Origin: Phaeovibrio sulfidiphilus
Lineage (GTDB): Bacteria > Pseudomonadota > Alphaproteobacteria > Rhodospirillales > Rhodospirillaceae
Length of the DNA: 64,000 bases
Assembly (NCBI RefSeq): GCF_014861485.1
Contig: NZ_JACZHT010000001.1
Coordinates: forward strand, 248,001-312,000
Direction of reading: 5' to 3'
The notes beneath the pieces were generated by a model. That model saw nothing but the letters and a program-made list of their open reading frames with translations. It had not been told where the DNA came from and did no database searches. Both the position numbers and the translations under genes were made by a program. This document shows, piece by piece, positions 1-34,093 of the stretch; the first letter of the stretch is position 1, and each line of letters opens with the position of its first letter.

Positions 1-2340
1 ATCCGAAGATCCGGGGCCTACCACCTGTACATCACGCGAGCGGTCCCGCCGTAGCTGTCACGCTGGCCGACAGAGCCCTGGAAGCCGGCGCCCACAGACA
101 GCGTCTCCAGCGCGGTCCACTGGACACCGACCTCACCGATACCGGTGTGCCCCATGACGTCGATGGCCGGGATGTGCGCAACGTTCGGAGAGCCGATCTT
201 ACGGGCGGAACCCTTCTGGGTGCCGTCGAACTCGTACTCCCACGCCGCACCCACATAGCCCTTCAGACTGGGCAGGAAGGTGTGCGACAGGCGGGCACCG
301 AGGCGCGAGCGGGCCGACAGGGAGCTGTCGAAGCGCAGTTCCTCGCCGGCCGTGTCGCTCGCCGTGTCCGACCCCATGTGGGCGAACAGGCCCTTCGCGT
401 AGAGGTCGGCCTGGCCGTCCTGCCACGTGTCAACCAGCATGCCGAGGCCGACGTGACCGCCGACGTAGGTGGCGTCGGTGTCGAAGTTGGTCGCGGACTG
501 GTGCCCCTCGTACTCCGCGTCAACGTAACCGGCGCGAACCGAGGCGTCGGCGTAGATGCCGTTGCAGAAGCTGTCGTGACGGACAACCAGCGCACCGCCG
601 TAGTAGCTGGCGTCGGCCCTCCCGTTGAACGCACCGCGCCAGGCGAAGGCATTGTTCAGGTCATAGCCGCCCCAGCCGGCCTCGAACAGGACACCGACCG
701 TCGTGCGGCCGTACTCGTGGTCGAGAGCAACTCCGGGACCAGCCGCCAGGCTGAAGCCCGTGCCCGAGACATCTGAGCCCGTCGTCACCCTGGAGTGGCC
801 ACCGCCAACGGTAACCATGGCGACGGGCTGGATGCCCCTGGCCGGGTTGTAGGCGCCAAGCGGAAGCGCGGTGTCGAACGCATCCACCAGAAGATCCTGA
901 CCCTGGTTCAGCAGGGTTTCGGACGCCGTGCGGGCCTGCAGCGCGGACGTGCCACGGTCAGCCGCGATACCGCGGAACTCAGCAATAACCGAGTCGTTGG
1001 TACCCCAGTCGCGGATCGTGTCGGTGGCGTCGTTGTTGCCGTAACCGACCGCGTACACGCCCTCGATGAAGCCCTGGTGAGCCCAGGAACGCGCCTCGAT
1101 GGTGGCGGCCCGGTCCTCGGAAAACGTCCTGCCGCGGATCGTGGACACATCACCCTGGATCCGGTCAACCAGCGTCAGGCGGGGGTTGATGCCCTTCTGA
1201 GCGTATTCCTTGCTCTTGCGCAGGCTCTCCATGTCGTCGATGGAGTCCAGACGCTGGCTCAGGTCGACAGACCGGTCGCGATCAAGGTGAACGATCGGAG
1301 CCGTGCCACCCACAACCTCAAGAGCCACGATGCCGTTGGCACCGGTCTCGGTCACGAGCTTGTTCTTCTTGCCATCGCTGCCGGTGGCAAGACGCTGGCC
1401 GTCAAACTTGGCCTGCCACGCGTCCGCCTCGGCGATACGACCCGGGAGGTCGTTCGACAGGTGGAACAGCGCCTCGTTCACGGTCAGAGCCTGACCCGGG
1501 GCAGTCGAGGTGATCGCCAGACGGGCCGATGTGTGGTAGCCGCGGAACATGTCCCCCACCTCCAGACGGCCGCCGAACGCGTAGTTGCCCGTCCCACCGG
1601 CGCCCGCCATGTCGCCCCTCACCACGGTCTGGGAGCCGGAGCCCAGCCACAGGGTGCTGAAGGCCACGCCGCGAGCCGACCGATCCTTGAGGTTGCCCGC
1701 AACCGCATTCTGGAAGTCCAGCGTGGTGGCCGTGATCTGGACCGGGTTCTCGATCCAGTCCCGGGACACGGTGTTCGTGGTCGCAACGTGGATACGATCG
1801 GCCCACAGGTCCGCACGACCGCGGGTGCCCTTGTTGTCATCGACCGTGATGGCGATGCTGTTCGGGCCCGAGTAGCGGTTGTCGACGATGGTCAGCGTTC
1901 CCGGAAGAGACAGGCGACGGACATCGTTCGCATCGGCCGTTGTCGTGGTCGTGAGATCACGATCGTTGTCGATCACCCAGTCCTTGCGGATCTCGAAGCC
2001 AGTGATCGTCGCCTGCAGGTAGTTCTTCTTGTCCGCGGCGGTCACGATACCCAGCGAGTAGGTCGCGTCCGCCACGTTGCCCCAGGTGTCGCCGATGGTG
2101 CCGGCGCCGTTGTGACCCGTGAAGGTCGAGCCCGCCGCCGTGTTGACCAGGTTCACGGCCTGGCCCAGACGGACGTTGTCCGCGCCCAGGATGTTGACCT
2201 TCGTGGTGTCGCTGATCGCCAGGCCGGAGCCATCCTTCGAGCCCGCGTTCACCGACAGAATCTGGGGCACGAGGCCCTCATTCGGAACGTGCGCAAGGTT
2301 CGCCACGTCAAAGACAACGGTCCGTCCGGACGCGGACAGC
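1..2340 (-). repeat. Shared 3' block of the autotransporter pair, copy 1
   Basis: This block encodes the conserved C-terminal ~770 residues of paralog 1. It matches 5821-8160 at a constant offset of 5820 bp at every point I compared between positions 18 and about 2340, so no net insertion or deletion is visible there. Beyond ~2340 the register slips (a 3-nt shift) and similarity decays. Only one base differs in spacing in the 3' flank. Confidence 0.85.
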
Positions 2341-5300
2341 GGGACCGCCACCTCTCCGAGCTCCCTGTCCGTCCGGGTCACATCAAGCCGGTTGGGCGTG
2401 TTGACGCCATTTTGAACCGCATTGCCCGCGTAGAGATGACCCCCCGCCTGCCAGGTCCAGCCGGGGGAGCCGGTGGCCGAGGCAAGGGACAGCGTCCGCC
2501 CCCCGCTCATGCCCAAATGGGTAAATGCGACCCGATAGGCGCCCCCCGGCAACGTGGTACCGGTTACGGGTCTCTCGTTGAGCTTCAGGGTCAGATCCTC
2601 GTTTGCGGCGAAAAGGGTGGTGGCGGTCACGAACACCGACCCGTGCGCCCGGTCGATGTTCAAAACCGAGCCCGATCCTCCGCCCGTACGCAGGACCGAA
2701 ACCTCAACCCTCGCCTCGCCCGCGTGAGGCGCAGCAAACCCTGCGTCATCAAAATCGGACCACGTCCCGCTGATCCGCCCGCTGTGAGTATCCATATTGG
2801 TTACCGTCAGCGTGTCGGCTGTCAGGCGGGAGACAGACCCCCTGCCAGTTGCGAATTTGTGCCCGTTCCCTCCGTAAATTCTCAAATGATCCGCCACGTG
2901 AACATGACCGCCCCTCACGGCAAGCGTCACGTCGCCGCCCGAACCGTTGTCCAGGGGCCGGTCTCCCGTCGCCCGGGTCTGGCCTCCTCCACGCAGACTC
3001 AGCCCCTGGCCGAAGTACGCCGAGCCGCGGCTCACGTCCACCGTCACGGACCCACCATTCCCCCCGGTGAAGTTGATGGACGCGCTGCCCGCCCTGCCCC
3101 CGATGAACAACCCCTCTCCCGCCACATCAAGGGTACCCACGGCAATACGGGCGTTTCCGGCCCGCGCTCCGGCCACCTTTTCGTTTGCGTGCCCGCCGTC
3201 GCCGCCACGAATTACGAGCTGGCGGCCAGCCTGATACGTGCCTCCCACAGAGACCTCGAGATCGCCCCCTACTCCGGCCACGACAGCGCCCGTCGGAATA
3301 CGGGGGTCGAGCTGGTGGTTCGCGGCCCTTGAGTTTCCCGCATACCCGGTCACAAGCGAATGATCGCCCCCGACACGCACGTCCCGTGCAACCGAAAGGG
3401 TGGCGCCTCTTCCATTCCCGGCCCGCCCCGCGGTCTCAAAGCCGGAAAGGATCCCGCCGCCGGAGGCCGGGTTTATCTCCAGCCCCCCCGAGGCCGAGAC
3501 AAGGTCGCGCCCGACTGTCACCTGAATGGCACCCGAATCACCGGCATCCCCGCCAGTGGCCACACTGCCACCCTGGGCTCTGATCCCGATCCGCAGCACA
3601 TTCCCAAACGTGATATCGGACGCGTAGCTGACCCGAACATCGCCACCATCACCGCCCCGGGCGGGGCCTCCCTCACCCCAAGCCTCCCCCCCGCTCCCGC
3701 TTGCAAAGGAGGCCCCCCCTGCATAAACGGCGGCACCGTGGTAGATCTCCTCCACGTTCCCGCCCCGGCCGCCCACACCTGCACTGTTAACCAGGCTCCC
3801 AATTCCCCCAATCACACGGTATTGGTGGTCCAGTGTCGTGCCCGAGCTGAGGCATACATCCGTAACCCCGGTGAGGCGCGAGGCACCGTAAACCACGCGG
3901 ACATCCCCACCCGCACCGCCCTCACGCGTCTCCCGGGCGTCCCTATCCAAAGAGAGGAAGCCTCCGCCCCCTGCAACAATTTCCGCATCGCCCCCGATCA
4001 GGGTGCGACCGCCCACGCTCAGAAAAACGCCGCCGCCCTCGCCGCCTTTTCCCGCAAGGCCGGACGCGCCTCCATGGCCTGCTTGAAGAACAAAGCGGCC
4101 GCTGTAGTACACGGGTGAGCCGTCCGAAAGCGTTGCCTGGCGGACCTCGAGAGTGTCCTCGACCCGGAGGATAACATCCGTGGACCGGCCTCCCCTCCCC
4201 CCCGAATCCGTATCGGAGCCGGATCCGCCCGTGGCGCCGTCGCCCGTCGAGTTCATTGCGGCGACCAGGTTGCCGTAGACCGAAATCCTGCCCGCATCCA
4301 CAGTAATCGTGGACGCATTACCGCCGGTACCGGTCCCCGCGCCGCGTCCGGATCCCGCCAGAACCGAGCCACCGCCCGCTGTTTCGATGAAAAAATCCCC
4401 CGCCGCGTATTCCCCGGGGGGCATCCCGTTGGCGTACCCGACCTCCACTTCCCCGAAAATTTCGTGTTTCGCCGTGCCGTCACCGCCCCGCCCACGGCCT
4501 GACGCATCCCCGCCGGCGGCGCCAGACAGGGTCAGGGTGCCGTCAGCACCACCAAGAACGACCAGCTTTTTCGCAAATGTCACGACGCTCCGGCCGCCGG
4601 ACCCACCATCTCCGACGCCACCTTCGCCCCCCGCAACCGCGGTTGACCGGTACTGCCCCTTGACGACCACGTCCTCGAGAAAGCTCACGGTAACCGTTCC
4701 GGCACTGCCGCCCGTTGACCCGGCCCCCTGCCCGCCCCGACCGCCTTGTCCGCCCGGTCCGATCTCAACCCGAGTTCCCAACGCGGTGGACACGGTGCCT
4801 GAGAAAACGGCCGTGACGTCTCCCCCGTCGCCGCCACGACCGTTCGGAAGAGCACCCCCGTCGCCCCCCTTGCCCGACTGAATGGTGAGAGTTTTGCCGC
4901 TGGCGAGAACCAGGGGACCGTTGAGCGTCACCGTCGCAGCCCCACCCGAGGCGCCGGCACCGCCGACCCGCCCATCCGCCACGGACCAGCCCGAAGACCC
5001 CTCCCCGCCGGCGAGGGTCACGGACCCCATACCTCCGTTCGGATCGACGCCTGCGAAAGAGCCGGACCAGCGGGCCTCGCCTCCAGCCCCCACGCTGAGC
5101 GTCCCGCCGCTGGACGCGGTGAATGCACCGGCCTTGCCCCCCGTGACGGTCAGTGTATCGCCATCCTGGAGAACATCCCCTGTCACCCACGCCTCGCCGC
5201 CCTTCAGGTCTCCGGCGGGAGGAACCGGTGCACCCCGGTGCTCCGACCCTCCGTCTGCGCGCACAGCCTCCCCTGCAAGGCCAGACGTCGCCGATGCATC

Positions 5301-5432
5301 ATTGCTCGCACCCTCTCCCCCTTTGACGACCGCCGACGCCGCGCGAGCATCGCCCGCGGCAACGAACGGACACGCCGCAACAAGTGCAAGCACCGAAACA
5401 AGAACTCCCGCCCGCCCAACTCCGCACTTCAT
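18..5432 (-). CDS. Large Gly-rich autotransporter (type Va), paralog 1
   Basis: A 1804-residue surface protein predicted to be exported by Sec and to thread its passenger through its own C-terminal outer-membrane barrel. Residues 1-31 form a signal peptide (MKCGVGRAG, hydrophobic core, cleavage near ARA). Residues ~32-1060 are repeats of ~40-50 residues that alternate GG-rich turns with short beta strands, as expected of a parallel beta-helix. The last ~270 residues are the autotransporter barrel, ending in the aromatic motif MYRW. The start at the MKCGV methionine is preferred over an upstream ATG because it gives a signal peptide matching that of the downstream paralog. From about residue 1030 to the end it aligns with that paralog almost without gaps; the passenger does not. 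The barrel holds one cysteine (HDSFCNG). The passenger ligand or function cannot be told from sequence. The 3' flank is cut by the window edge. Confidence 0.93.
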   Translation of the reverse strand: MKCGVGRAGVLVSVLALVAACPFVAAGDARAASAVVKGGEGASNDASATSGLAGEAVRADGGSEHRGAPVPPAGDLKGGEAWVTGDVLQDGDTLTVTGGKAGAFTASSGGTLSVGAGGEARWSGSFAGVDPNGGMGSVTLAGGEGSSGWSVADGRVGGAGASGGAATVTLNGPLVLASGKTLTIQSGKGGDGGALPNGRGGDGGDVTAVFSGTVSTALGTRVEIGPGGQGGRGGQGAGSTGGSAGTVTVSFLEDVVVKGQYRSTAVAGGEGGVGDGGSGGRSVVTFAKKLVVLGGADGTLTLSGAAGGDASGRGRGGDGTAKHEIFGEVEVGYANGMPPGEYAAGDFFIETAGGGSVLAGSGRGAGTGTGGNASTITVDAGRISVYGNLVAAMNSTGDGATGGSGSDTDSGGRGGRSTDVILRVEDTLEVRQATLSDGSPVYYSGRFVLQAGHGGASGLAGKGGEGGGVFLSVGGRTLIGGDAEIVAGGGGFLSLDRDARETREGGAGGDVRVVYGASRLTGVTDVCLSSGTTLDHQYRVIGGIGSLVNSAGVGGRGGNVEEIYHGAAVYAGGASFASGSGGEAWGEGGPARGGDGGDVRVSYASDITFGNVLRIGIRAQGGSVATGGDAGDSGAIQVTVGRDLVSASGGLEINPASGGGILSGFETAGRAGNGRGATLSVARDVRVGGDHSLVTGYAGNSRAANHQLDPRIPTGAVVAGVGGDLEVSVGGTYQAGRQLVIRGGDGGHANEKVAGARAGNARIAVGTLDVAGEGLFIGGRAGSASINFTGGNGGSVTVDVSRGSAYFGQGLSLRGGGQTRATGDRPLDNGSGGDVTLAVRGGHVHVADHLRIYGGNGHKFATGRGSVSRLTADTLTVTNMDTHSGRISGTWSDFDDAGFAAPHAGEARVEVSVLRTGGGSGSVLNIDRAHGSVFVTATTLFAANEDLTLKLNERPVTGTTLPGGAYRVAFTHLGMSGGRTLSLASATGSPGWTWQAGGHLYAGNAVQNGVNTPNRLDVTRTDRELGEVAVPLSASGRTVVFDVANLAHVPNEGLVPQILSVNAGSKDGSGLAISDTTKVNILGADNVRLGQAVNLVNTAAGSTFTGHNGAGTIGDTWGNVADATYSLGIVTAADKKNYLQATITGFEIRKDWVIDNDRDLTTTTTADANDVRRLSLPGTLTIVDNRYSGPNSIAITVDDNKGTRGRADLWADRIHVATTNTVSRDWIENPVQITATTLDFQNAVAGNLKDRSARGVAFSTLWLGSGSQTVVRGDMAGAGGTGNYAFGGRLEVGDMFRGYHTSARLAITSTAPGQALTVNEALFHLSNDLPGRIAEADAWQAKFDGQRLATGSDGKKNKLVTETGANGIVALEVVGGTAPIVHLDRDRSVDLSQRLDSIDDMESLRKSKEYAQKGINPRLTLVDRIQGDVSTIRGRTFSEDRAATIEARSWAHQGFIEGVYAVGYGNNDATDTIRDWGTNDSVIAEFRGIAADRGTSALQARTASETLLNQGQDLLVDAFDTALPLGAYNPARGIQPVAMVTVGGGHSRVTTGSDVSGTGFSLAAGPGVALDHEYGRTTVGVLFEAGWGGYDLNNAFAWRGAFNGRADASYYGGALVVRHDSFCNGIYADASVRAGYVDAEYEGHQSATNFDTDATYVGGHVGLGMLVDTWQDGQADLYAKGLFAHMGSDTASDTAGEELRFDSSLSARSRLGARLSHTFLPSLKGYVGAAWEYEFDGTQKGSARKIGSPNVAHIPAIDVMGHTGIGEVGVQWTALETLSVGAGFQGSVGQRDSYGGTARVMYRW

Positions 5433-5837
5433 ACCTTTTACCCCGTACTTCGTGGATCCGCCCCCGAACCACTCCTCAAAAGGGCACTCCCGAGAACAGG
5501 GCGGACACAACAACCTTGCAGTGGAAAATACAATAAAAACTCCCGAAGACACAGAATTTTACAGCCTTAAAAATGAGATTTGTCCACATCGCTACCCTAA
5601 AGCGGCATTAGTACACATCACACATGTGAAGATTCCCACTGGAAGCACGCAACTTATTGGTTTTTCTATTACCTCAGATTTAAATTCACAGGCGGCGACG
5701 CAGCGACACCATCCCGGAACAAGCGCGGTGACGCTCCGGCAGCAGGACCGGACAAAAAAAAGGCGGCTCCCGAAGGAGCCGCCCATTCAGATCCGAAGAT
5801 CCTGGTGTCTACCCGATGGATCCGAAGATCCGGGGTC
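5433..5837. other. AT-rich spacer between the two autotransporter genes
   Basis: This holds the leader of paralog 1 and the 3' end of paralog 2. Positions ~5515-5700 are strikingly A+T rich for this genome and probably contain the paralog 1 promoter, though I cannot assign convincing -35/-10 hexamers. A CACATGTG palindrome lies near 5621. The 12-mer ATCCGAAGATCC occurs near 5791 and again near 5820, and also at positions 1-12 beyond paralog 1. No protein gene is seen. Confidence 0.6.
5754..5783 (-). terminator. Intrinsic terminator of autotransporter paralog 2
   Basis: On the minus strand a perfect 9-bp stem (GGCGGCTCC / GGAGCCGCC, loop TTCG) is followed by eight T residues. It lies 55 bp past the stop of paralog 2, so the two autotransporters are transcribed separately. 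Confidence 0.9.
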
Positions 5838-8160
5838 TTACCACTTGTACATCACGCGAGCGGTACCGCCGTAGCTGTCACGCTGGCCGACGGAGCCCTG
5901 GAAGCCGGCACCGACCGACAGGTTCTCCATCGCGGTCCACTGGACGCCGACCTCACCGATACCGGTGTGGCCCTTGACGTCGATGGCCGGGATGTGCGCG
6001 ACGTTCTGGGAGCCGATCTTACGAGCGGAACCCTGCTGCTTGCCGTCGAACTCGTACTCCCACGCCGCACCGACATAGCCCTTCAGGGTGGGCATGAAGT
6101 TGTGCGACAGGCGGGCACCGAGGCGCGAGCGGATGGAGGTCGAGCCGTCAAAGCTCAGCTCTTCCCCAGCCGTGTTGTGCACGGTGTCCGAACCCATGTG
6201 GGTGAACAGGCCCTTCGCGTAGAGGTCGGCCTGGCCGTCCTGCCACGTGTCAACCAGCATGCCGAGGCCAACGTGACCGCCGACGTACGTGGCGTCGGTG
6301 TCGAAGTTGGTCGCGGACTGGTGACCCTTGTACTCCGAGTCAACGTAACCAGCGCGGACCGAGGCGTCGGCGTAGATGCCGTTGCAGAAGCTGTCGTGAC
6401 GGACAACCACCGCACCGCCGTAGTAGCTGGAGTCGGCCTTCGCATTGAACGCACCGCGCCAGGCGAACGCGTTGTTCAGGTCGTAGTCACCCCAACCGGC
6501 TTCGAACAGGACACCCACCGTCGTGCGACCGTACTCGTGGTCGACGGAGAGACCCGGACCGGCCGCCAGGCTGAAGCCCGTACCGGAGACGTTCGAACCG
6601 GTATCCACCTCACGGTGGCCACCACCGACCGCAACCATGGCGACGGGCTGGATGCCCTTGGCCGGGTTGTAGGCGCCGAGCGGAAGCGCGGTGTCGAACG
6701 CGTCGACCAGCAGATCCTGACCCTGGTTCAGCAGGGTTTCGGACGCCGTGCGGGCCTGCAGCGCGGACTTGCCGAGGTCAGCAGCGATACCGCGGAACTC
6801 AGCGATAACCGAGTCGTTGGTACCCCAGTCGCGGATCTTGTCGGTGGCGTCGTTGTTGCCGTAACCGACCGCGTACACGCCCTCGATGAAGCCCTTCTGA
6901 GCCCAGGAACGCGCCTCGATGGTGGCGGTCCGGTCCTCGGCGAAGGTCTTGCCGCGGATCGTGGACACATCACCCTGGATCCGGTCAACCAGCGTCAGAC
7001 GCGGGTTGATGCCCGACGGAGCGTAAGCCTGCTTCTTGCGAAGGGTCTCCATCTCGTCGGTGGAGTCCAGACGCTGGGTCAGGTCGACAGTCCAGTCGCG
7101 ATCGAAGTGAACGATCGGAGCCGTGCCACCGACAACCTCAAGAGCCACGATGCCGTTGGCACCGGTCTCGGTCACGAGCTTGTTCTTCACACCGTCGGTG
7201 CCGTTGGCAAGACGCTGGCCGTCAAACTTGGCCTGCCACGCGTCCGCCTCGGCGATACGACCCGGGAGGTCGTTCGACAGGTGGAACTGAGCCTGGTTCA
7301 CCGTCAGAGCCGCCGCGGCAACAGACGCGTCGTTCGTCAGGCGAGCCGAGGTGTGGTAGTCGCGGAACTTGTCGCCAACTTCCAGACGGCCACCGAAGGC
7401 GTAGTTGCCAACACCGTCAGCACCCGCCATGTCACCCCGCAGGTTCGTCGCCGAACCGGAGCCGAGCGCCAGGGTGTTGAAGGCCACACCACGAACCGAA
7501 CGGTCCTTGAGGTTGCCCGCAACCGCGTTCCCGAAGTGCAGCGTGGTCGAGGTGATCTGGTTGCCGTTCTCGATCCAGTCGCGGGACACGGTGTTCGTGG
7601 TCGCAACGTGGATCTTGTCGGCCCACAGGTCCGCACGACCGCGAGTACCCTTGTTGTCATCAACCAGGATGCCAAGGTTGTTCGGGCCCGCGTAGCGGTT
7701 GTCGACGATCTTCAGGGTACCCGGCAGGGACAGACGACGAACGTCGCTACCGTCGGCAACGTCAGCGGTCTCAAGGTCACGGCTGTTGTCAATGACCCAG
7801 TCCTTGCGGATCTCGAAGCTGGTGATCGTCGCCTGCAGGTAGTCCTTCTTGTCCGCGGCGGTCACGATACCCAGCGAGTAGGTCGCGTCCGCAACGTTGC
7901 CATAGGTATCCCCGATGGTGCCGGCGCCGTTGTGACCCGTGAAGGTCGAACCGGCAGCGGTGTTCACCAGGTACACGGTCTGGCCAAGACGCAGGTTGTC
8001 CGCGCCCAGGATGTTGACCTTCGTGGTGTCGTTGATCGCCAGACCGAAGGCGTCAGCCGAAGTGGCGTTCACCGCCAGGATCTGGGGGACAGCACCCTTG
8101 GCCTCAACGCGGTCAAGGTTGGCCACGTCGAAAGCGGCCGTACGACCGGCTGCCGACTGC
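5821..8160 (-). repeat. Shared 3' block of the autotransporter pair, copy 2
   Basis: Partner of 1-2340 at a fixed offset of 5820 bp. Most differences are single substitutions, many at third codon positions. Confidence 0.85.
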
Positions 8161-11096
8161 TGAACCGCAACGATATTGGCCGACTTGTCATCCTTGCGGG
8201 TCACGGTCAGCGTGTTGGCTGCGTTGTCGGTACCGTTGTGGGCGTTGGCAGCGTACAGGTGGCCGCCGGCAACCCACGTGTAAGCGACGGTCTCGTTCGC
8301 GGAGGCGATCGCCAGATTGGAGGCGCCACTCATACCCAGGTTGGTGAAGGACACCTGGTAAGAACCCGGGTTGATCTTGTTGGCACCAATCGGACGCTCG
8401 TTCAGCACCAGCGACAGATCCTCGTCCACCGCGACAACGTTGTCGGCGGTGACCGAAACCGTGCCGTTCTGACGATCGATGGTCAGCTTCGAACCCGCAC
8501 CGTCGTTCGTACGCAGGATGCCCACGTTCAGCGTGGCCGAGCCAGCGTGGGTGGCAACCTTGCCGTCCGTGTTGTAGGCGGAGGCCGTACCCTGGATCTT
8601 ACCGTCCGTAACGCTTCCCAGAGTCAGCGACTTCGCGCTCACCCGGGCTGCACCGGCATCCGTGTTCGCCTTCTCGGCGCCGTCACCACCGGTGATGCCA
8701 AAGGCACCGACCGAGTAGATGTAGCCCTCGTTGGCGGTGAAGGTCGCGTTACCGGCCGCACCGTTCTTCGCCTTGGTGGCGTCCTCGGCGTTGTACTGCT
8801 TGCCCGCAGCCACCGAAAGACCCTCACCGAAGAACGCAGCGCGCCCCGTAACGGTCGCATTCACGTCACCAGCGTTACCGCCCGCGAAACCAGCCGTTGC
8901 GCTGCCCGCGTTACCACCGGCAAAGGAGCCGCCCTTCGCGACGTCAAAGACGCCGACCGTGACATTCGCCTTGCCAGCGTTGGCACCGGCAACCTTGGCG
9001 CCCGCGTTACCGCCCTGACCGCCGGAGTACGTAACAGCGTCGGTCGAACCATAAACGCGCTTCACGGAAACCGTGAGGTCGCCACCGTTACCGGCCGAAG
9101 CGGTGTTACCGGGGCGAGAATTACCAGCAACTGCCAGATCACCGGAGTTGCCAGCGCTTCCTGCCGAAGCCGTGTGAGCACCCGAGACGATCAGGTCGCG
9201 AGCGACAGTAACAGTCGTCGCCTGGCCGTTACCAGCCTTGCCCGTAGCGGTCCCATCGGTAGCAGAACCACCGTTTGCAGCGCCGAGCTTCAGCGCGGCG
9301 TCACCGAGCAGGTCGCGAGCGACAGACACCTGAACAGTACCGGAGTCGCCGGCCTTACCGGCGCCAACCACTTTACCGCCAGCGCCACCGGCGATGGTGA
9401 TCTTGCCAGTCGCCTTCGCGTCAGAGCCGTAAGCAACCGCGATGTTGCCACCGACACCCGCTTCCGCCGTCTCAGTAGTACGGAGGTTGGCGTCACCACC
9501 GGTGCCGCCCGTGATGTCGAGGGTACCAGCGTAGTTGGCCGCACCGACGTAGGTCTCGGTGACATTGGCACCGCGACCAGCCTTGCCGGAAGCAAGAGCG
9601 TCCGTCGCGACCGCCGTGCCCGCAGCACCACCGTTGCCCGCGGTCACCCCATAAGCGGTACCCGCGTTCATCACGACAGTCGTGATCTTGTCCTTGAAGG
9701 ACGTGCCATAGGTGTTGGTGACGTCACCGGCAGCACCACCCGTCGCCGTAGCATTGCTGCCCTTGACGGCGTCTCCGCCCGTACCACCCGTGAAGCTGGC
9801 GTTGCCCGTGATGGTGGTCGCACCGGCAACCGTCAGGGCAAAAGCACCGCCAGCACCACCGTTACCGATGGTTCCGCTGTCACCGCCGTTGTTACCGCCA
9901 ACGGTCAGATCGCCGCCTGCGGGAGTCCCAGCCTTGTCTGCGCGGACGGTCAGATTGCCGCCAACAGTGATGCTGGTCGAACCGCCGGCACCGCCCGTGC
10001 CGCCATTGGCGACATCGGAACCCTTGCCACCAGCGGCACCGGTCACCTTCAGATCACCAATCACGACAGCGTCCTTGGCAACCTCAAGGGCAACAACAGA
10101 ACCCGCGCCACCCTGGCCGGTGCTCTTCGCATCGCCACCCTTACCGGTGGTGACAGTGAGATCGCCCTTCTTGGTGTCGAGACCAACGGTGAGCGAGCCA
10201 TAGCTCTGGGAGATGGCCGAACCGGCACCACCCGTGCCCGACCCGCTCGAGTCGGCACCGTTTCCGCCTTTGATAGCCAGCGCGGAGTCAAACGCGGCAG
10301 CCTTCTCGAACTTGGTGGTGATAACACCACCATTTCCACCATTTCCGGAAGCAGCCGCGGCAACCACGCCACCAGAAACACCGTTAACAGTGAAGGAACC
10401 GATTTTCGAGTCGTCGAGGACCGTCAGGGAGACGTTCCCCACGTTACCGCCGTTGCCCGTGGAGGCAGCCTGACCAGCCGCCTTGCCGGTCGCATTGATC
10501 ACGAGCGCCGCTTCAGTAGCGCCGGTTGCGTCAGCAGCCTGAGAAAGGCCGCCGTTGATCACGAGCGTCACGCTGCCGGAATCACCGCCGTTGGCAGCAG
10601 CGCCGTTGACCGCATCACCGGCAAGAAGCTCAAGCTTCTTGCTCGCCGCGAGCGTCACACCGTTGGTGAAGTTCACCGTCACGCTACCGCCGACCGCGCC
10701 GGCGGTCGCGCCACCGACAAGGCCACTGCCCGACGTCAGCGAGATGTCGGAAGCCCCCTGGGTGTCAGCGTTACCGCCAATAAAGGAGCCGCTCCAGCTG
10801 GCGTTACCGCCCGCGCCAGTGGCAGTCCCAGCACCACCCTTAATCGTGAGCTTCTTGCCGTCGGCAATCGTGTCGTCCTTGACGGACACGTTCGCGCCGT
10901 CCTTGGTCACTTTGTCTTGTTGAGTGTACGTGGTGTCACCCAGTGTCGGGTCAACCGCGGGAGCTCCGCCGTCCGCACCCGTCACCACAGCGTCCTGAGC
11001 AGCAGCCCAGGCATTACCTGCCGAGAGCGCCGGGACGGCCAGGGCGAGTGCGAGCGCCGAAACGACAACTCCGCTTCTCCTGATCGAAACCTTCAT
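5838..11096 (-). CDS. Large Gly-rich autotransporter (type Va), paralog 2
   Basis: A 1752-residue autotransporter with a signal peptide at residues 1-31 (MKVSIRRSG, cleavage near AWA). The passenger to residue ~1000 is dominated by GG-rich modules interleaved with short V/T/I strands. The C-terminal barrel begins around residue 1480 and ends in MYKW. The chosen ATG has a good ribosome-binding site (AGAGGG, 8 nt upstream); the longer open frame would bury the signal peptide. It is a tandem paralog of the next gene downstream: about 735 C-terminal residues align without indels, while the passengers differ in length and sequence. Compared with paralog 1, its passenger is richer in Ala/Asn/Thr and poorer in Arg/Pro. 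A role in adhesion or surface shielding is typical of the family but is only inferred here. Confidence 0.94.
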   Translation of the reverse strand: MKVSIRRSGVVVSALALALAVPALSAGNAWAAAQDAVVTGADGGAPAVDPTLGDTTYTQQDKVTKDGANVSVKDDTIADGKKLTIKGGAGTATGAGGNASWSGSFIGGNADTQGASDISLTSGSGLVGGATAGAVGGSVTVNFTNGVTLAASKKLELLAGDAVNGAAANGGDSGSVTLVINGGLSQAADATGATEAALVINATGKAAGQAASTGNGGNVGNVSLTVLDDSKIGSFTVNGVSGGVVAAAASGNGGNGGVITTKFEKAAAFDSALAIKGGNGADSSGSGTGGAGSAISQSYGSLTVGLDTKKGDLTVTTGKGGDAKSTGQGGAGSVVALEVAKDAVVIGDLKVTGAAGGKGSDVANGGTGGAGGSTSITVGGNLTVRADKAGTPAGGDLTVGGNNGGDSGTIGNGGAGGAFALTVAGATTITGNASFTGGTGGDAVKGSNATATGGAAGDVTNTYGTSFKDKITTVVMNAGTAYGVTAGNGGAAGTAVATDALASGKAGRGANVTETYVGAANYAGTLDITGGTGGDANLRTTETAEAGVGGNIAVAYGSDAKATGKITIAGGAGGKVVGAGKAGDSGTVQVSVARDLLGDAALKLGAANGGSATDGTATGKAGNGQATTVTVARDLIVSGAHTASAGSAGNSGDLAVAGNSRPGNTASAGNGGDLTVSVKRVYGSTDAVTYSGGQGGNAGAKVAGANAGKANVTVGVFDVAKGGSFAGGNAGSATAGFAGGNAGDVNATVTGRAAFFGEGLSVAAGKQYNAEDATKAKNGAAGNATFTANEGYIYSVGAFGITGGDGAEKANTDAGAARVSAKSLTLGSVTDGKIQGTASAYNTDGKVATHAGSATLNVGILRTNDGAGSKLTIDRQNGTVSVTADNVVAVDEDLSLVLNERPIGANKINPGSYQVSFTNLGMSGASNLAIASANETVAYTWVAGGHLYAANAHNGTDNAANTLTVTRKDDKSANIVAVQQSAAGRTAAFDVANLDRVEAKGAVPQILAVNATSADAFGLAINDTTKVNILGADNLRLGQTVYLVNTAAGSTFTGHNGAGTIGDTYGNVADATYSLGIVTAADKKDYLQATITSFEIRKDWVIDNSRDLETADVADGSDVRRLSLPGTLKIVDNRYAGPNNLGILVDDNKGTRGRADLWADKIHVATTNTVSRDWIENGNQITSTTLHFGNAVAGNLKDRSVRGVAFNTLALGSGSATNLRGDMAGADGVGNYAFGGRLEVGDKFRDYHTSARLTNDASVAAAALTVNQAQFHLSNDLPGRIAEADAWQAKFDGQRLANGTDGVKNKLVTETGANGIVALEVVGGTAPIVHFDRDWTVDLTQRLDSTDEMETLRKKQAYAPSGINPRLTLVDRIQGDVSTIRGKTFAEDRTATIEARSWAQKGFIEGVYAVGYGNNDATDKIRDWGTNDSVIAEFRGIAADLGKSALQARTASETLLNQGQDLLVDAFDTALPLGAYNPAKGIQPVAMVAVGGGHREVDTGSNVSGTGFSLAAGPGLSVDHEYGRTTVGVLFEAGWGDYDLNNAFAWRGAFNAKADSSYYGGAVVVRHDSFCNGIYADASVRAGYVDSEYKGHQSATNFDTDATYVGGHVGLGMLVDTWQDGQADLYAKGLFTHMGSDTVHNTAGEELSFDGSTSIRSRLGARLSHNFMPTLKGYVGAAWEYEFDGKQQGSARKIGSQNVAHIPAIDVKGHTGIGEVGVQWTAMENLSVGAGFQGSVGQRDSYGGTARVMYKW

Positions 11097-11449
11097 ATTT
11101 TCAACCCTCTTTCCTAGTTGTTCGGTGATTAACCCCGAACGGTCTATGAGCGACGCGAAAAATTTCCTTCGCTGCCCTTCCTTTGAAGTACAGCAAAATG
11201 CCCCCCCACTCAAAGGCTCCATGGCCGTCAGGTGACTTTTTTTTAGCCTTGTTGCAAAAAGGCAACAAACACCATAAATCGTTGTGTACAATCCAGGGAC
11301 GAAAAAAAGGGGGATAGCGCCGATCTGGCCCCACCCCCCTTCACCTGCATAGCGTGCCAAGCCCGTTGTAAAACAACCATAAACTTGGCTTAAAGTCCCT
11401 GGGCCGGACCCGGCCCGGTCTCACTCGCCGTGAGCGAGACAGAGCCCTT
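11097..11449. other. Leader region of autotransporter paralog 2
   Basis: This gene-free stretch is relatively A+T rich at 11150-11320. It contains an inverted repeat and possible promoter (listed separately). At 11418-11440 an imperfect hairpin (GTCTCACTC / GAGCGAGAC) without a T-tract lies just beyond the stop of the Old Yellow Enzyme gene and might act as a weak terminator. No coding signal is seen. Confidence 0.5.
11240..11268 (-). promoter_or_regulatory. Possible promoter and inverted repeat upstream of autotransporter paralog 2
   Basis: A perfect 7-bp inverted repeat, TTGTTGC-N6-GCAACAA, spans 11249-11268. On the minus strand TTGTTG (11268-11263) and TAAAAA (11245-11240) are 17 nt apart and could serve as -35 and -10, which would place the repeat over the spacer like an operator. 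The hexamers match consensus only moderately. The distance to the ATG is about 145 nt. Confidence 0.35.
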
Positions 11450-13468
11450 TCACTTCTTTCGGCCCGACTTTCCGCCCTTGGCGGCCTTACCCGATTTCCC
11501 GGATTTCGGCGCGGCCGGGGCTGCGGGAGCCACCGGAACACGCGGAGCCGGAGCGGCGGGCATCCCCGCCGGCGGCACCATTCCCGCCACAAAAGGAACC
11601 TCCCGGGACGCCGGGCGCACCGATTCCGGCACCAGACGCGGTGAAACCGCCGGTTTCAGGACAACCGGGTCCGGAGCTTTGGGAGGCTGGGAAGGCGCAA
11701 CCGCCGGTTTCGGAGCCTCGACGGGCTTCGAATCAACATTTTGGGGGTCCGGCTTCACCGACTCCACTTTCTGAGGTTCCGGAGTCGCCACAGCGGCCTT
11801 CACCTCGGCCTTCACGGGCTCGGGCTTCACCGGCACTGCCTTCGGGGGCTCCGGGGCCTTCACCTCGGCAGGCTTCACAGGTTCGGGCTTCGCCGGCACC
11901 GCCTTCGGGGGCTCCGGGGCCTTCACCTCGGCCTTCACCGGCTCGGGCTTCGCCGGCACCGCCTTCGGGGGCTCCGGGGCCTTCACCGCGGCAGGCTTCA
12001 CGGGCTCCGGCTTCACCGGCGCCGCCTTCGGGGGCTCCGGGGCCTTCACCGCGGCAACCTTCACGGGCTCGGGCTTCGCCGGCACCGCCTTCGGGGGCTC
12101 CGGGGCCTTCACCGCGGCAACCTTCACGGGCTCGGGCTTTTTCGCAACCGCGGGTTTCGGAGCCGGAAGGGCCTCCGGGGTCGGGCGGGCCGTCAGGGCG
12201 GGGGGCGCTGCGGGCGCGGACGGAGCCGCCGAGGCCGCACGGGCCTCCCTGCGGCGGCGCTCCTCCACCCGGTGTGCCGCGCGGCGAAGCTGCTCGGCGC
12301 GGCGGCCCAGAGCGGTCGCGGGCCCCTCGGCCTTAGCGGGATCGACGGGAACCTCATACGGCTTGAAGTCCGTGTAGCCCTTCGAGCCCCCGCCAAAGAA
12401 CACGGCGGGATCGGCGATGGCCAGCGGCCAGCCGTTGCGCAGGCGCTCCACAAGATCCGGGTTGGCAATGAACGGACGCCCGAACGAGGCGATGTCAATC
12501 AGACCGCCGACAAAACCGCCGCCCTGGCTCATCAGGCGCTCGGCCTCGGCGCGGTCCAGGCTGCCCGCGAGGATGATGGTGCCCGAGAACGCCGCCCGGA
12601 ACAGGCGCAGGAAGGACTCCGGGATCGCCCGCTCGCCCGAGGGCAGCATCTCGCTGTTGAAGTGCACATAGGCGAGACCCATGCGCGACAGCGCCCGGCC
12701 CAGAAGAATATAGGTCTCGGCAATGGACTCGTAATGCGGGTTGTCGAGCCGCGTGCTGAACGGCGACAGGCGCACGCCCACACGGGACGGGCCCACCCGG
12801 TCCGCAACCGCCTGGAGCGTCTCCACCAGGAACCGGACGCGGTTCTCAACCGAGCCGCCGTAGCAGTCGCTGCGGTCGTTGATGTTCGGGTTCAGGAACT
12901 GCTCGAACAGGTAGCCGTTGGCCCCGTGGATCTCGACACCGTCGAAACCGGCCCGGATGGCGTTCTCCGCCGCCTGGGCGAACTCGCGGGAGATGCGGGG
13001 CATCTCCTCGGTCTTCAGGCCCCGGGGCTGGGAGGGGGACACAATCTTCGGCTGTCCGTTCTCCAGGCCCGTGACAACCCGGAACAGGTCGTCCTTCAGG
13101 GTCTTGTCGGTGGAGCTGACCGGCGCGGCCTTTCCGGGCTGGATGTCCGAGTGGGAGGCGCGGCCCGCGTGCCAGATCTGCGCGAAAATGACCCCGTCCT
13201 CCTTGTGGACGGCGTCCGTGACCTTTTTCCAGCCGCGGATCTGGTCCTGGGTCCAAAGACCGGGCGTGGCGATCGAGCTCATGGCCTCCGGCGACACGGC
13301 AATACACTCGGAGACGATCAGTCCGGCCCCCGCGCGCTGCGCATAGTAAAGGGCCGTGTCCTCGTGGGGGATCGTGTCAGGCGTCCGCGACCGGGTCATG
13401 GGAGCCATGGCAATGTGATTGGCCAGGCGTCGCCCGGCAAGATTATACGGGGTAAACAAGGATTTCAT
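11450..13468 (-). CDS. Old Yellow Enzyme (NADH:flavin oxidoreductase) with repetitive Pro/Lys/Ala C-terminal tail
   Basis: 672 residues. Residues 1-~370 are a complete FMN-dependent ene-reductase of the NemA/alkene reductase family. It starts LFTPYNLAGRRLANHIAMAPMTR, spread over the first residues, and has the substrate-binding pair His181/Asn184 (HGAN), the FLNPNINDRSDCYGG segment and a TIM-barrel phosphate loop around ILAGSLD and GRPFIANPDLV. Family members normally stop near residue 365-375. Here the frame continues through an Arg/Ala-rich helix (~385-410), six or so repeats of ~20 residues built on KPEPVK..VKAPEPPKA.P (~443-560), then a Pro/Ala segment and a basic end (GKSGKAAKGGKSGRKK). 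The reaction is NAD(P)H-dependent reduction of activated alkenes or related electrophiles; the natural substrate is unknown. The tail resembles TonB-like or histone-H1-like low-complexity spacers. The long uninterrupted frame argues against a frameshift artefact. Confidence 0.9.
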   Translation of the reverse strand: MKSLFTPYNLAGRRLANHIAMAPMTRSRTPDTIPHEDTALYYAQRAGAGLIVSECIAVSPEAMSSIATPGLWTQDQIRGWKKVTDAVHKEDGVIFAQIWHAGRASHSDIQPGKAAPVSSTDKTLKDDLFRVVTGLENGQPKIVSPSQPRGLKTEEMPRISREFAQAAENAIRAGFDGVEIHGANGYLFEQFLNPNINDRSDCYGGSVENRVRFLVETLQAVADRVGPSRVGVRLSPFSTRLDNPHYESIAETYILLGRALSRMGLAYVHFNSEMLPSGERAIPESFLRLFRAAFSGTIILAGSLDRAEAERLMSQGGGFVGGLIDIASFGRPFIANPDLVERLRNGWPLAIADPAVFFGGGSKGYTDFKPYEVPVDPAKAEGPATALGRRAEQLRRAAHRVEERRRREARAASAAPSAPAAPPALTARPTPEALPAPKPAVAKKPEPVKVAAVKAPEPPKAVPAKPEPVKVAAVKAPEPPKAAPVKPEPVKPAAVKAPEPPKAVPAKPEPVKAEVKAPEPPKAVPAKPEPVKPAEVKAPEPPKAVPVKPEPVKAEVKAAVATPEPQKVESVKPDPQNVDSKPVEAPKPAVAPSQPPKAPDPVVLKPAVSPRLVPESVRPASREVPFVAGMVPPAGMPAAPAPRVPVAPAAPAAPKSGKSGKAAKGGKSGRKK
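11800..12140 (-). repeat. Tandem repeats encoding the tail of the Old Yellow Enzyme
   Basis: About six in-frame units of 60-63 bp encode KPEPVK-(A/V)(A/E)..VKAPEPPKA(V/A)P. Units differ by single codons or a 3-bp deletion, so the reading frame is kept. Slippage-prone copy number would change tail length without breaking the frame. Confidence 0.85.
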
Positions 13469-30353: not shown

Positions 30354-30540
30354 GCGATGTCCTCCTTTGGACTGGCGCGGCTCCCGTCCTGCCGGCTGCG
30401 AGCCCTGAGGCCACCACGGCAGAACGCAAAAGGGATCCGGAGCCCCGACGGGCCCGGTCCGGAAACAGCGCAATCGAAGTGTCAAATGGACGGGGACGTC
30501 CGGGGCTGCTCTTCAGTCTAGAGCCTAACCAGAAAACGCC

Positions 30541-30696
30541 AAAAAGAAAACCCCGTCCGGGAGGAGAGAACCGGACGGGGTTTGGCCGCTTTCCCCAGAT
30601 TGACTTCCGCCAGGCGATGCGTCCCCTTTGCTGGCGGAGGTCGATGCGACCGGACATGGAAAGAAGCGGCAGAACTAGAAGTCAGGAGTGCCTTCT
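30541..30696 (-). ncRNA. Candidate Fur-regulated small RNA
   Basis: The predicted ~155-nt transcript begins about 7 nt after a -10 element and ends at a strong intrinsic terminator. Internal structure is plausible: GTCAG/CTGAC near the 5' end, a near-perfect 12-bp stem (GACCTCCGCCAG / CTGGCGGAAGTC, 30603-30643), and the terminator stem. The terminator loop reads UUCUCUCCUC, complementary to GAGGAG-type ribosome-binding sites, as in anti-Shine-Dalgarno loops of known regulatory RNAs. The only internal ATG frame has no ribosome-binding site and runs through the terminator, so it is probably non-coding. No known RNA family was recognised. Confidence 0.55.
30548..30583 (-). terminator. Strong intrinsic terminator of the candidate sRNA
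   Basis: A perfect 13-bp stem (AAACCCCGTCCGG / CCGGACGGGGTTT) with a 10-nt pyrimidine-rich loop is followed on the minus strand by TCTTTTT. The nearest upstream minus-strand gene ends about 740 bp away, so it most likely serves the local transcript. Confidence 0.85.
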
Positions 30697-30703
30697 GACG
30701 ACG

Positions 30704-30732
30704 ACTATCCAGCAACTGATAATCATTGTCAA
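30704..30732 (-). promoter_or_regulatory. Sigma70-like promoter overlapped by a Fur box
   Basis: The -35 TTGACA (30732-30727, six of six consensus) and -10 GATAGT (30709-30704) are separated by exactly 17 nt. The plus-strand sequence TGATAATCATTGTCA at 30717-30731 matches the 7-1-7 Fur motif TGATAAT-N-ATTATCA at all but one position. It lies across the -35 and spacer, where Fur-Fe2+ would block RNA polymerase. Confidence 0.65.
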
Positions 30733-31003
30733 CATAGAAAACGCATCTTTTTTCATCCGGGGGAAAAAATCCACCCGAAGCAGGCCCACGGATCGGCGCC
30801 GAGGCCGGATTTCCCGGGTTTCCGGGGGACATCCCGGGCCGTCGGGCAAAAAGGAAGCGGGGAGCGGACAGAAAGCCGCACCGGCTGTGCCGCCCGCACG
30901 GGCCGAAAGGGGGGCCGGGACCGTCTTCCCGGGCAGACTCCGGCGGACGCGGGCGGAAACGGGACCGGATCGGGGCTCACGTGGGCAGGGACTCGCAGGC
31001 TCC

Positions 31004-31144
31004 GGCAAGACCACCGGCGGCGCGACCGGATCGGGGGTGGACACCGAAGCGACCCGCGGGCTCCGGCAGGACTACACAAGGAACGACCGGCTCAGGGCCG
31101 ACACCACAGGAATCGGCAAGACCACCGGCGGCGCAACCGGATCG
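31004..31144. repeat. 30-bp direct repeats in the spacer downstream of the helicase gene
   Basis: GGCAAGACCACCGGCGGCGC and the following 10 bases occur at 31004 and again at 31115 with one mismatch. The intervening sequence contains weaker relatives. Confidence 0.8.
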
Positions 31145-31321
31145 TGGCCGACGCCACAGGACTGGCGGGGGCGGACACACACCCTCACGGCGCCCGGTGG
31201 GGCCCCCTCTGCCCCCGTCGGGACACTCGGCCCCCGCTCGCGTGCGGACAATCGCCACGCCCCCGGCCCTGCCCCCCTGCGGACGGATCCACGCGCGCCG
31301 GAGGCCCGGCGGCCTGCAGGA

Positions 31322-34093
31322 TCAGGGCTCTCGCGGAGCACCCCCGTTCTCGGCCCGGACAATGGCCACGGCCTCCGCCAGCCCGACCCTCTCCACCACC
31401 ACACCGGGGGGGAAGGCGCTCAGCAGGCGCGACGGCGTGCGGGAATCCAGCATCACAAACACACCCCGGTCCCGGCTGGAGCGCACAAGCCGCCCGAAGG
31501 CCTGTTTCAGGCGCAGGCGGGTGATGCGGTCGTCGTACCGGGTCTTGCCCCACACGTCCCGCCGGGCCTTGTGGAGGATGTCCGGGCGGGGCCAGGGGAC
31601 GCGATCGAAGACAATCAGGCGCAGGGACCGCCCGGGCACATCCACACCGTCGCGCACCGCATCCGTCCCCAGCAGGCAGGAATTTTCCTCCTCCCGGAAG
31701 ATGGACACCAGCGTGCCCGTGTCCATGGCGTCCACGTGCTGGGCGTAGAGGGGCAGGTTCTGGCGGGCCAGCTCCGGCGCAATCCGGTCGTACACCGCCC
31801 GCAGACGGGACACGGCCGTGAACAGCCCCAGCCCCCCGCCCCCCGAGGCCCGGAACAGGGCGGACACGGCACTGGCCACCCGGTCGGGCACGTCCCGGGC
31901 CACGTCGGTGACGATCAGCACCCGGGTCATGGAGGGGTAGTCATAGGGCGAGGCCACCGCGGCCCGGATGGCCGGCTCCTCCAGGTGGATGGCCCCGGTG
32001 CGGCACTCCGCCACCCGCCACGAGGCCTCCGGGTCCGGATCGTTCGCGGACAGGTCACGCAGCGTGGCCGAGGTGATCACCACCCCCTGGGCCGTGCGGG
32101 ACAGAACACCGGCGAGCGGGCGGGTCGGATCGATCCAGTGGCGGCACAGCCCCACGTCCAGCTCCTGACCGTCGCTGCGCTCCACCGCCAGCCAGTCCAC
32201 AAAGCCGTCGGGCGTGGGCTCCCCCAGGCCGCGAACGATATCGCGCCAGGCCCTCAGGGGCGCAATGACCCGCCACTCCAGGGACCGGGCCAGGGACTCG
32301 ATCCGGTGGCGCACCGCGCTGTCCAGGGTCTCGGCCTCCGCGTCCAGGCTCTTGAGCAGGGCCCGGCTGAACTGCTGAAGGGGGGTGAACAGGGCCTCCA
32401 GCGCCTCGCGGGCGGCCGGTGCGCAGTCCACAAGGGCCTCCGAGGCGGGGACCACCTCGGTTTCCAGGCTGTGCCCCCGCTCGCCGTCCCGGGCCCGGGC
32501 GTGGACCTGCTCGCGGAAGGCGCCCAGAAGGGCCTCCAGAGGGCCAAGGGGCGAGCCCCCCGCAAGACGGGCCTGCCAGCCCATGGAGGGAAGGACCGAG
32601 GCCGCGGCCAGCGCGTCATCCAGAAACTCGGCGGCGTCCGTATCCGCCTCGAACAGGCCTTCCGCCCGGCGCTTCAGGCCCCGCCCCCGGGAGCGGGCCC
32701 CGGCGTCCTCGGCGCCCAGAAGCCAGCGGCGCATCTCCATGCCCTCCTGGGCCGTGACATGGACCGCAAAGGCCGAATCCGCCGCATCGAACAGGTGGTG
32801 CCCCTCGTCAAAGACGTAACGGGTCGGGTGGCTGTCGTCGTCCAGGCCGCCCAGAGCCGCCTGAACCAGGACCAGCGCGTGATTGGCCACCACAAGGCGT
32901 GCCTGCCCCGCCCGCCGGACGGCGCGCTCGACAAAGCAGCGGTTGAAGTGGTCGCAGCCCGAGAAGATGCACTCGCCGCGCCGGTCCGCAAGGCCCAGGG
33001 TGCGCTCGCGCCCCGCCAGGTCCGCCAGCCAGCCGGGGAAGTCGCCGCCCATCATGTCGCCGTCCCGGGTGGCCTCCGCCCAGCGGGCCATCAGGCCCAG
33101 GGGGACCGCCTCCCGCGGACTGGCGCCGATCCGGCGGACGGCCTCCTCCAGGTTCAGAAGGCACAGATAGTTTTCCCGCCCCTTGCGCACCACCACGTGG
33201 CGCGCCTTCTCCACCGGGTCGGGGTAGAGCCGGTCCAGCTCCTGGTCCAGCTGGCGCTGAAGGTTGCGGGTGTAGGTGCTGATCCAGACCGCGCCGCCGT
33301 TCTTCTCGGCCCACAGGCTGGAGGGCGCGATATAGCCAAGGGTCTTGCCGACCCCGGTCCCGGCCTCCGCCAGGACCACGTTGGGTGCGTTCTTCCGCTT
33401 TCCCGGAGTGAAGGCCGGGCACACCGCCGAGGTGTAGTCCGCCTGCTGGACCCGATGCTCCGAATCCGCGCCCAGAAGGGACTTCAGCCGGGCCCGGGCC
33501 TCGTCCGGGGTGACGGACAGGTTGCCCGGAGGCGGCAGGGGCGGAAACTCGGGGATCTCGGGCAGGCGCGACCAGACGGCAAAGGCCCGCGACGCGCCGC
33601 TGCGGGGCTCGGGTCCGGCACCCAGGGCCTGGAGAACCGGGAACGTCCATTCCCAGCCGCCCCGGCCCATGACCTCGGCCAGACCCACCGCGGTCTCCCG
33701 TTCCTTCGAGGCTGTCCGGGCCAGCCGGGCAAACAGGGCCATGGCCGCCGCCGGAAGCACAAGGGCCTCGGCCTCCAGGCTGTCCGGAGGCGCCGTCCCC
33801 AGCGCGCGGGCAAGGCCTCCAGGGGTCGGCGAGGCAAACTCCGCCGGGCAGGCAAAGGCAAACAGCTCCATCAGGTCGAAGGCGGGGAACCAGGACAGGC
33901 CAAGGCGCCGGGCCACGTGAAGCCGGTGGCACACCATGGGGCGCAGGCTCTCGATGCGGGACTGGAGACCCACACCGGGGCGGACGGTCTCGATCTCGCC
34001 GCCGGGGAACACCAGGACGCCCCCCTCCGCCCCGACGGCCAGGGCCGGAACAGGAGGCGGGTAGACGGGAGCGTGATCCGGCGGATGGGGCAT
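31322..34093 (-). CDS. DinG/YoaA-family ATP-dependent DNA helicase (XPD-like, Fe-S)
   Basis: 923 residues of superfamily 2, XPD-like 5'-3' helicase. Walker A is AEAGTGVGKT (~residue 240) and the DEAH-box variant is FDEGHH (~429). Fe-S-cluster cysteines lie in YLCLL and CIFSGCDHFNRC (~308 and 377-389). Motif III-VI regions include ITSATL and a QAFGRLVRSSRDRG arginine-finger segment. A ~200-residue N-terminal region without recognised motifs precedes the helicase core. It likely unwinds forked or R-loop/D-loop structures during repair. It stands alone, with GC-rich spacers on both sides. Confidence 0.92.
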   Translation of the reverse strand: MPHPPDHAPVYPPPVPALAVGAEGGVLVFPGGEIETVRPGVGLQSRIESLRPMVCHRLHVARRLGLSWFPAFDLMELFAFACPAEFASPTPGGLARALGTAPPDSLEAEALVLPAAAMALFARLARTASKERETAVGLAEVMGRGGWEWTFPVLQALGAGPEPRSGASRAFAVWSRLPEIPEFPPLPPPGNLSVTPDEARARLKSLLGADSEHRVQQADYTSAVCPAFTPGKRKNAPNVVLAEAGTGVGKTLGYIAPSSLWAEKNGGAVWISTYTRNLQRQLDQELDRLYPDPVEKARHVVVRKGRENYLCLLNLEEAVRRIGASPREAVPLGLMARWAEATRDGDMMGGDFPGWLADLAGRERTLGLADRRGECIFSGCDHFNRCFVERAVRRAGQARLVVANHALVLVQAALGGLDDDSHPTRYVFDEGHHLFDAADSAFAVHVTAQEGMEMRRWLLGAEDAGARSRGRGLKRRAEGLFEADTDAAEFLDDALAAASVLPSMGWQARLAGGSPLGPLEALLGAFREQVHARARDGERGHSLETEVVPASEALVDCAPAAREALEALFTPLQQFSRALLKSLDAEAETLDSAVRHRIESLARSLEWRVIAPLRAWRDIVRGLGEPTPDGFVDWLAVERSDGQELDVGLCRHWIDPTRPLAGVLSRTAQGVVITSATLRDLSANDPDPEASWRVAECRTGAIHLEEPAIRAAVASPYDYPSMTRVLIVTDVARDVPDRVASAVSALFRASGGGGLGLFTAVSRLRAVYDRIAPELARQNLPLYAQHVDAMDTGTLVSIFREEENSCLLGTDAVRDGVDVPGRSLRLIVFDRVPWPRPDILHKARRDVWGKTRYDDRITRLRLKQAFGRLVRSSRDRGVFVMLDSRTPSRLLSAFPPGVVVERVGLAEAVAIVRAENGGAPREP

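What the first reader, a model, noticed from the sequence alone, without database searches (positions are those of the whole stretch)
1..11096. Tandem autotransporters with a homogenised 3' block and diverged passengers
The last ~2.3 kb of both genes align at a constant 5820-bp offset with no visible indel from the stop codons to about position 2340/8160. The passengers upstream differ in length and sequence. Such a sharp contrast suggests gene conversion keeping the barrel and its stalk uniform while the exposed part diversifies, a layout suited to surface variation.
Basis: partly seen in the sequence, partly recalled or inferred. Interest (0 to 1): 0.62.

Follow-up and report, generated by a model that had tools for sequence, protein, structure and literature searches.

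The report
Autotransporter array with gene-converted barrels
Four neighbouring genes for very large bacterial surface proteins appear to overwrite parts of one another's membrane-anchor end by recombination while the exposed part of each drifts apart, a known way for bacteria to keep a working export end under a changing surface.

Summary
In detail: two minus-strand autotransporter genes (A 18-5552, B 5838-11360; likely ATGs 5432 and 11096) align without an indel for about 2.3 kb at offset 5820. They are half of a four-gene tandem array (C and D lie outside the window). After correction for codon usage, passengers are at synonymous saturation for five of six pairs, while the 3' block (stalk, barrel, terminator) is not. 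The block is patchy, not uniform: the nearest relative switches A-B, A-C, A/B-D along it (split clustering, 0/20000 shuffles), the signature of ectopic gene conversion rather than plain duplication or protein-level constraint. In A, B and D the homology crosses the stop codon and ends after the terminator. The pattern recurs in two other autotransporter clusters of this genome; of four tandem pairs in relatives one shows it, one partly, two not. The barrel has the type Va autotransporter fold, though Pfam PF03797 misses it. No orthologue was found, so switching is untested. This is concerted evolution of outer-membrane paralogues as known from Helicobacter bab/hom: a new member of a known kind. 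Less expected: passengers differ in codon usage from their own barrels.

The parts
18..5432 (-). Gene A, autotransporter: signal peptide, Gly-rich passenger, stalk, barrel (ORF extends to GTG at 5552; ATG of the signal peptide at 5432)
5838..11096 (-). Gene B, autotransporter, same layout (ORF extends to TTG at 11360; ATG of the signal peptide at 11096)
18..2360 (-). 3' block of A (stalk and barrel, 780 aa), homologous to B 5838-8180, no indel below 2359
5838..8180 (-). 3' block of B
939..1466 (-). A-B conversion tract in the stalk of A (A residues 1363-1538): synonymous mismatch 0.16 of saturation; the other pairs 0.71-0.85
579..938 (-). Tract in which D is nearest to A and B (A residues 1539-1658): A-D 0.29, B-D 0.37 of saturation, although D's stalk is near saturation
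219..398 (-). A-C tract in the barrel (A residues 1719-1778): 0.25 of saturation
18..962 (-). Barrel of A: helix plus about 12 strands (block residues 467-780)
5750..5837 (-). B 3' untranslated segment with intrinsic-terminator hairpin, 0.91 identical to A's and 0.87 to D's; homology ends after it
2361..5432 (-). Passenger of A (with signal peptide): GC3 about 0.70-0.72, against 0.83-0.86 in its stalk and barrel
8181..11096 (-). Passenger of B (with signal peptide); its 5' leader and signal peptide are close to D's (0.92/0.88 per 50 columns)

Best explanation
The two genes belong to an old tandem array of four type Va autotransporters (B, A, C, D in order of transcription). Each has a signal peptide, a long Gly-rich passenger, a stalk and a C-terminal barrel of about 12 strands; A, B and D end in a shared terminator segment. 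RecA-type ectopic recombination between copies overwrites patches of roughly 0.2-0.5 kb in the stalk, barrel and terminator, and different pairs have exchanged different patches. Passengers have diverged beyond the similarity that supports such exchange, and keep diverging. Shown here: the array, the mosaic, the homogenised non-coding end, recurrence elsewhere. Inferred: RecA as agent, ongoing exchange, barrel function conserved by exchange, surface display and any antigenic benefit.
For: Synonymous contrast with codon-usage control and bootstrap intervals. Switching of nearest relative: 178 informative sites in the block, AB 81, AC 58, AD 39; adjacent-equal 97 of 177 against a shuffled mean of 63.3, 0 of 20000 shuffles reach it; third positions alone (96 sites) 47 of 95 against 35.1, 118 of 20000. 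Longest shared runs exceed most shuffles for all six pairs when all sites are used (0-28 of 2000 reach them) and for three pairs on third positions (A-B 73, A-C 31, A-D 11 of 2000). Homology passes the stop codon and stops after the terminator. Same pattern in the C1:366852/371767 pair (872-nt exact match; about 112 nt past the stop nearly identical, then nothing) and in four C27 genes (100 informative sites, 0 of 20000). G009 tandem pair: barrels 99-100% identical to each other but 71-81% to the single syntenic gene of a congener, G028.
Against: Third-position run tests are null for B-C, B-D and C-D (988, 718 and 1754 of 2000). Part of the raw contrast is codon usage: block saturation pS is about 0.54, passenger 0.72. 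B-D passengers are slightly below saturation (0.79). Two of four tandem pairs in relatives show no homogenisation (G052, G069) and one only in its last 69 codons (G276). No strain comparison was possible.
Confidence: 0.85

Rival explanations
1. Recent tandem duplication of a barrel module with replacement of passengers by imported or shuffled sequence, so that the passenger rather than the barrel is the part exchanged.
For: Passenger GC3 is 0.63-0.79 against 0.83-0.91 in the barrels of the large autotransporters of this genome; C1 and G009 pairs have near-identical barrels with sharply different passengers; G009 has two genes where its congener has one.
Against: It does not predict the patchwork of nearest relatives inside the block of A-D, nor D's near-saturated stalk next to an A/B-like barrel. 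A GC3 step is also seen in autotransporters outside tandem clusters.
Confidence: 0.3
2. Purifying selection alone: the barrel is conserved because it must work, and no exchange has occurred.
For: pN is low in the barrel (A-B 0.06) against the passenger (0.45).
Against: Synonymous sites are also far below saturation, differently for different pairs in adjacent tracts, and the non-coding terminator segment is 0.87-0.91 identical.
Confidence: 0.03
3. A dedicated antigenic-variation system with silent passenger cassettes or phase switches.
For: Array layout with variable exposed parts; the signal-peptide end of B and D is also shared.
Against: The passenger profile hits only the four genes in the genome; one short tandem repeat and only weak inverted repeats (70-89% complementary) in 1-11500.
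Confidence: 0.06
4. Assembly chimaera between similar copies.
For: The genome is a draft of 31 contigs.
Against: Longest exact match within the array is 83 nt (A-B), others 28-55 nt, so ordinary short reads should separate the copies; the C1 pair, with 872 nt, is not safe on this point.
Confidence: 0.03

Closest known systems
Helicobacter pylori babA/babB and homA/homB outer-membrane paralogues
   Same: Conserved 3' segment under concerted evolution by intragenomic conversion, variable middle segment (PMC2795765, passages read; the bab result is cited there from another paper that I did not see)
   Different: Not classical type Va autotransporters with Gly-rich repeat passengers (recalled); strain data exist there
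Bartonella tandem autotransporter clusters
   Same: Clusters of 5-7 type V autotransporters, said to expand and contract by tandem duplication and/or deletion; only the conserved beta-domain was used for the tree (PMC2697382, passages read). Hypervariable exposed part in CFA (PMC10936683, one section read)
   Different: Intragenic conversion tracts are not described in the passages I read; the cause of CFA variation is called unclear there
Type Va autotransporters EstA, EspP, AIDA-I, NalP
   Same: Barrel fold with a helix in front (Foldseek E 2e-13 to 1e-10)
   Different: 12-17% identity in those rows; Pfam PF03797 does not match A or B at E <= 1

Membership tests
Type Va (classical) autotransporter | C-terminal 12-strand barrel with a helix leading into it | tested here: met
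   AF2 model, barrel region pLDDT mostly 80-93, helix 467-496 and about 12 strands; the best PDB matches are autotransporter barrels. The stalk (1-467) is modelled with pLDDT mostly below 50.
Type Va (classical) autotransporter | Match to Pfam PF03797 (usual label, not a strict definition) | tested here: not met
   No match for A or B at E <= 1; A-D are not among the 13 genome matches. The paralogue C23:71237-75904, 31-34% identical to A-D in the barrel, scores 34.7 bits, above the cut-off of 26. Read as a limit of the model; the fold feature is met.
Type Va (classical) autotransporter | N-terminal signal peptide and large passenger | tested here: met
   Read from sequence; no signal-peptide program was run
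Type Va (classical) autotransporter | Self-translocation and surface display | not testable with these tools
   Needs experiment
Concerted evolution by gene conversion | Copies share tracts at synonymous and non-coding sites | tested here: met
Concerted evolution by gene conversion | Paralogues closer to each other than to orthologues of sister species | tested here: inconclusive
   No orthologue of the array found; met for the analogous G009 pair against G028
Cassette antigenic variation (pilE/pilS type) | Silent partial copies | tested here: not met
   The passenger profile A3 matches only the four genes in the own genome

The most novel reading that the evidence does not exclude
Stalk, barrel and terminator act as a shared recombination handle at the end of each gene, so that whole passengers of separate, compositionally distinct origin can be exchanged between copies and strains: two-part genes whose halves have different histories, across at least three autotransporter clusters of one genome and in another genus of its family.
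Probability: 0.25. Interest if true: 0.6.

Novelty: new member of a known kind. Interest (0 to 1): 0.4.

Why it matters
It gives a dissected case of conversion tracts in an autotransporter array, with a non-coding end as a less constrained marker and a codon-usage control. It shows that a genome with an unusual number of autotransporters has the same layout in three separate clusters. The GC3 step between passenger and barrel makes the question whether the passenger or the barrel is the exchanged part testable with strains.

Tried and rejected
Raw pS as the sole test: rejected as biased, because passenger and block have different codon usage; replaced by codon mismatch at identical residues divided by expectation. 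Search for orthologues of the block: none beyond the genome itself in 60 relatives, 72 other family genomes and 316 other order genomes (these sets overlap; fewer candidates were scored and it listed only 3 of the own genome's 6 matches, so weak relatives may be missed there). Nine named loci carry only a barrel, at 31-38% identity; L025 was left out of alignment A1 (8 of 9 used). Profile search of the PDB by sequence: 0 matches at E <= 10. Repeat and inverted-repeat scans gave nothing useful. Silent cassettes: none. Organism: among solved structures EF-G scores best against 6not (recalled as Rickettsia), so probably an alphaproteobacterium; not settled. Dropped rows: the ORF C28:80541-83303 is on the wrong strand and was caught by my script's rule; it was excluded from the barrel table, is printed and not used. 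The short gene C28:83304-85442 shows no GC3 step (0.82 and 0.84) and is left out of the ranges given for the large genes. The partial match C23:300231 (contig end) and the weak match C26:194257 were not compared.

Literature: paper searches (open PMC library only) did not list a paper whose title or abstract start concerns conversion tracts between autotransporter barrels; no wider claim is made. PMC2928814 was opened (passages) and had nothing on this.

Full report
What is there. The window is contig C1:248001-312000 of a 2.59-Mb draft genome. The finding's two genes are on the minus strand, A at 18-5552 and B at 5838-11360, with likely ATG starts at 5432 and 11096 in front of typical signal peptides. 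At the offset of 5820 the two 3' ends match without an indel up to 2359/8182. A search of the whole genome shows two further copies downstream, outside the window: C (C1:242208-247691) and D (C1:234886-240906). Over the last 780 residues B, C and D are 85%, 77% and 67% identical to A.

Protein family. Neither A nor B matches a Pfam or NCBIfam family at E <= 1, apart from one chance-level DUF for A (E 0.87). The barrels of A-D are 31-36% identical to two single autotransporters of the same genome, one of which scores above the PF03797 cut-off. AlphaFold2 on a 14-sequence alignment gave a well-modelled end (about 12 strands plus a preceding helix) and a poorly modelled stalk (mean pLDDT 56.9 overall). 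Foldseek against the PDB ranks EstA, EspP, AIDA-I and NalP in the first places. I read these as type Va autotransporters with a divergent barrel. The Gly-rich passengers were not modelled; a beta-helix is an inference.

Synonymous divergence. Raw pS is 0.62-0.70 in the passenger for all six pairs, and in the barrel 0.25 (A-B) to 0.40 (B-C, C-D). This overstates the contrast: GC3 is 0.71 in passengers and 0.86 in the block, so random-codon saturation is 0.72 and about 0.54 respectively. I therefore counted codon mismatches at identical residues and divided by the expectation from codon usage. Passengers: 0.94-1.03 for five pairs, 0.79 for B-D. Block: A-B 0.45, A-C 0.60, A-D 0.66, B-D 0.68, B-C 0.76, C-D 0.81. 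Within the block the values jump: A-B is 0.16 at window 939-1466; A-D and B-D are 0.29 and 0.37 at 579-938, where A-B is 0.49; A-C is 0.25 at 219-398. The tract limits are edges of 60-column windows chosen by eye, not fitted breakpoints.

Mosaic test. Of 178 informative sites in the block, 81 support AB, 58 AC and 39 AD. Neighbouring sites agree 97 of 177 times against a shuffled mean of 63.3, with 0 of 20000 shuffles reaching it; at third positions 47 of 95 against 35.1, with 118 of 20000. A run test in the manner of GENECONV is strong with all sites. On third positions it gives 73, 31 and 11 of 2000 for A-B, A-C and A-D, and nothing for the other three pairs.

Non-coding end. A, B and D share the segment after the stop codon (0.87-0.91 identity) up to and including a terminator hairpin; after it identity drops to 0.44-0.55. 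The hairpin core occurs once in the 64-kb window (5764) and three times in C1:240001-260000, behind C, A and B. C has the hairpin further from its stop. At the 5' end only B and D share the region around the ATG closely (0.92 and 0.88 per 50 columns).

Recurrence. In the same genome the pair C1:366852-371195 / 371767-376203 has identical last 300 residues, pS 0.00-0.10 there against 0.29-0.62 over the passenger (the first window, with the signal region, has 0.17), an 872-nt exact match, and near-identity for about 112 nt past the stop, then none. Four genes on C27 have barrels 94-99% identical with passenger pS mostly 0.5-0.9, and a clustered split pattern (100 sites, 70 of 99 adjacent-equal against 41.2, 0 of 20000). 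In relatives I looked at four tandem PF03797 pairs that I picked from the list (not all such pairs): G009 shows barrels of 99-100% with passenger pS 0.56-0.84; G276 only its last 69 codons (pS 0.10); G052 and G069 show none. The G009 pair sits where the congener G028 has one gene, and both G009 barrels are 71-81% identical to that one.

Reading. Duplicated autotransporter genes here exchange sequence by ectopic homologous recombination over the part that stays alignable: stalk, barrel and terminator. The passengers are too diverged to take part. Whether conversion of barrels or replacement of passengers dominates is open. The GC3 step (passenger 0.63-0.79, barrel 0.83-0.91 in the large genes, seven window genes with known families 0.81-0.90) would fit passengers of other origin or under weaker codon selection. 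GC-biased conversion in bacteria is proposed in PMC4450053 (abstract read), but the block merely equals the background and genes outside tandem clusters show the step too, so I do not invoke it.

Comparison with the known. Concerted evolution of the 3' segment with a variable middle is described for homA/homB, and cited for babA/babB, of Helicobacter pylori (PMC2795765, passages). Tandem autotransporter clusters that expand and contract are described in Bartonella (PMC2697382, passages). [quoted passage not shown] The finding is therefore a new member of a known kind.

Limits. No strain or species with the array is held, so switching and benefit are untested. The passenger alignment is uncertain in places, which is why only identical residues were used in the corrected test. 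The draft assembly looks safe within the array (longest exact match 83 nt) but less so for the C1 pair.

Noticed in passing
outside the window, C27:103002-115219 (+,+) and C27:140886-151269 (-,-): Two tandem autotransporter pairs facing opposite ways about 26 kb apart with barrels 94-99% identical: inverted repeats that could invert the segment between them.
   Followed up: partly
outside the window, C27:140886-145634: Passenger stretch with GC3 0.27-0.48 (about codons 150-600) inside a gene whose barrel has 0.90: perhaps a foreign passenger.
   Followed up: no
outside the window, C30:64732-70560 and C27:103002-108536: 5' leader and signal region 84-91% identical in DNA with barrels only 65% identical in protein: 5' ends may be exchanged independently of the barrel.
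   Followed up: no
whole genome: 13 PF03797 matches, more than any of the 71 other genomes in the same search (next highest 8), not counting the four array genes, which the model misses.
   Followed up: partly
30479-34912 (+): 1477-aa ORF without any Pfam match at E <= 0.001.
   Followed up: no
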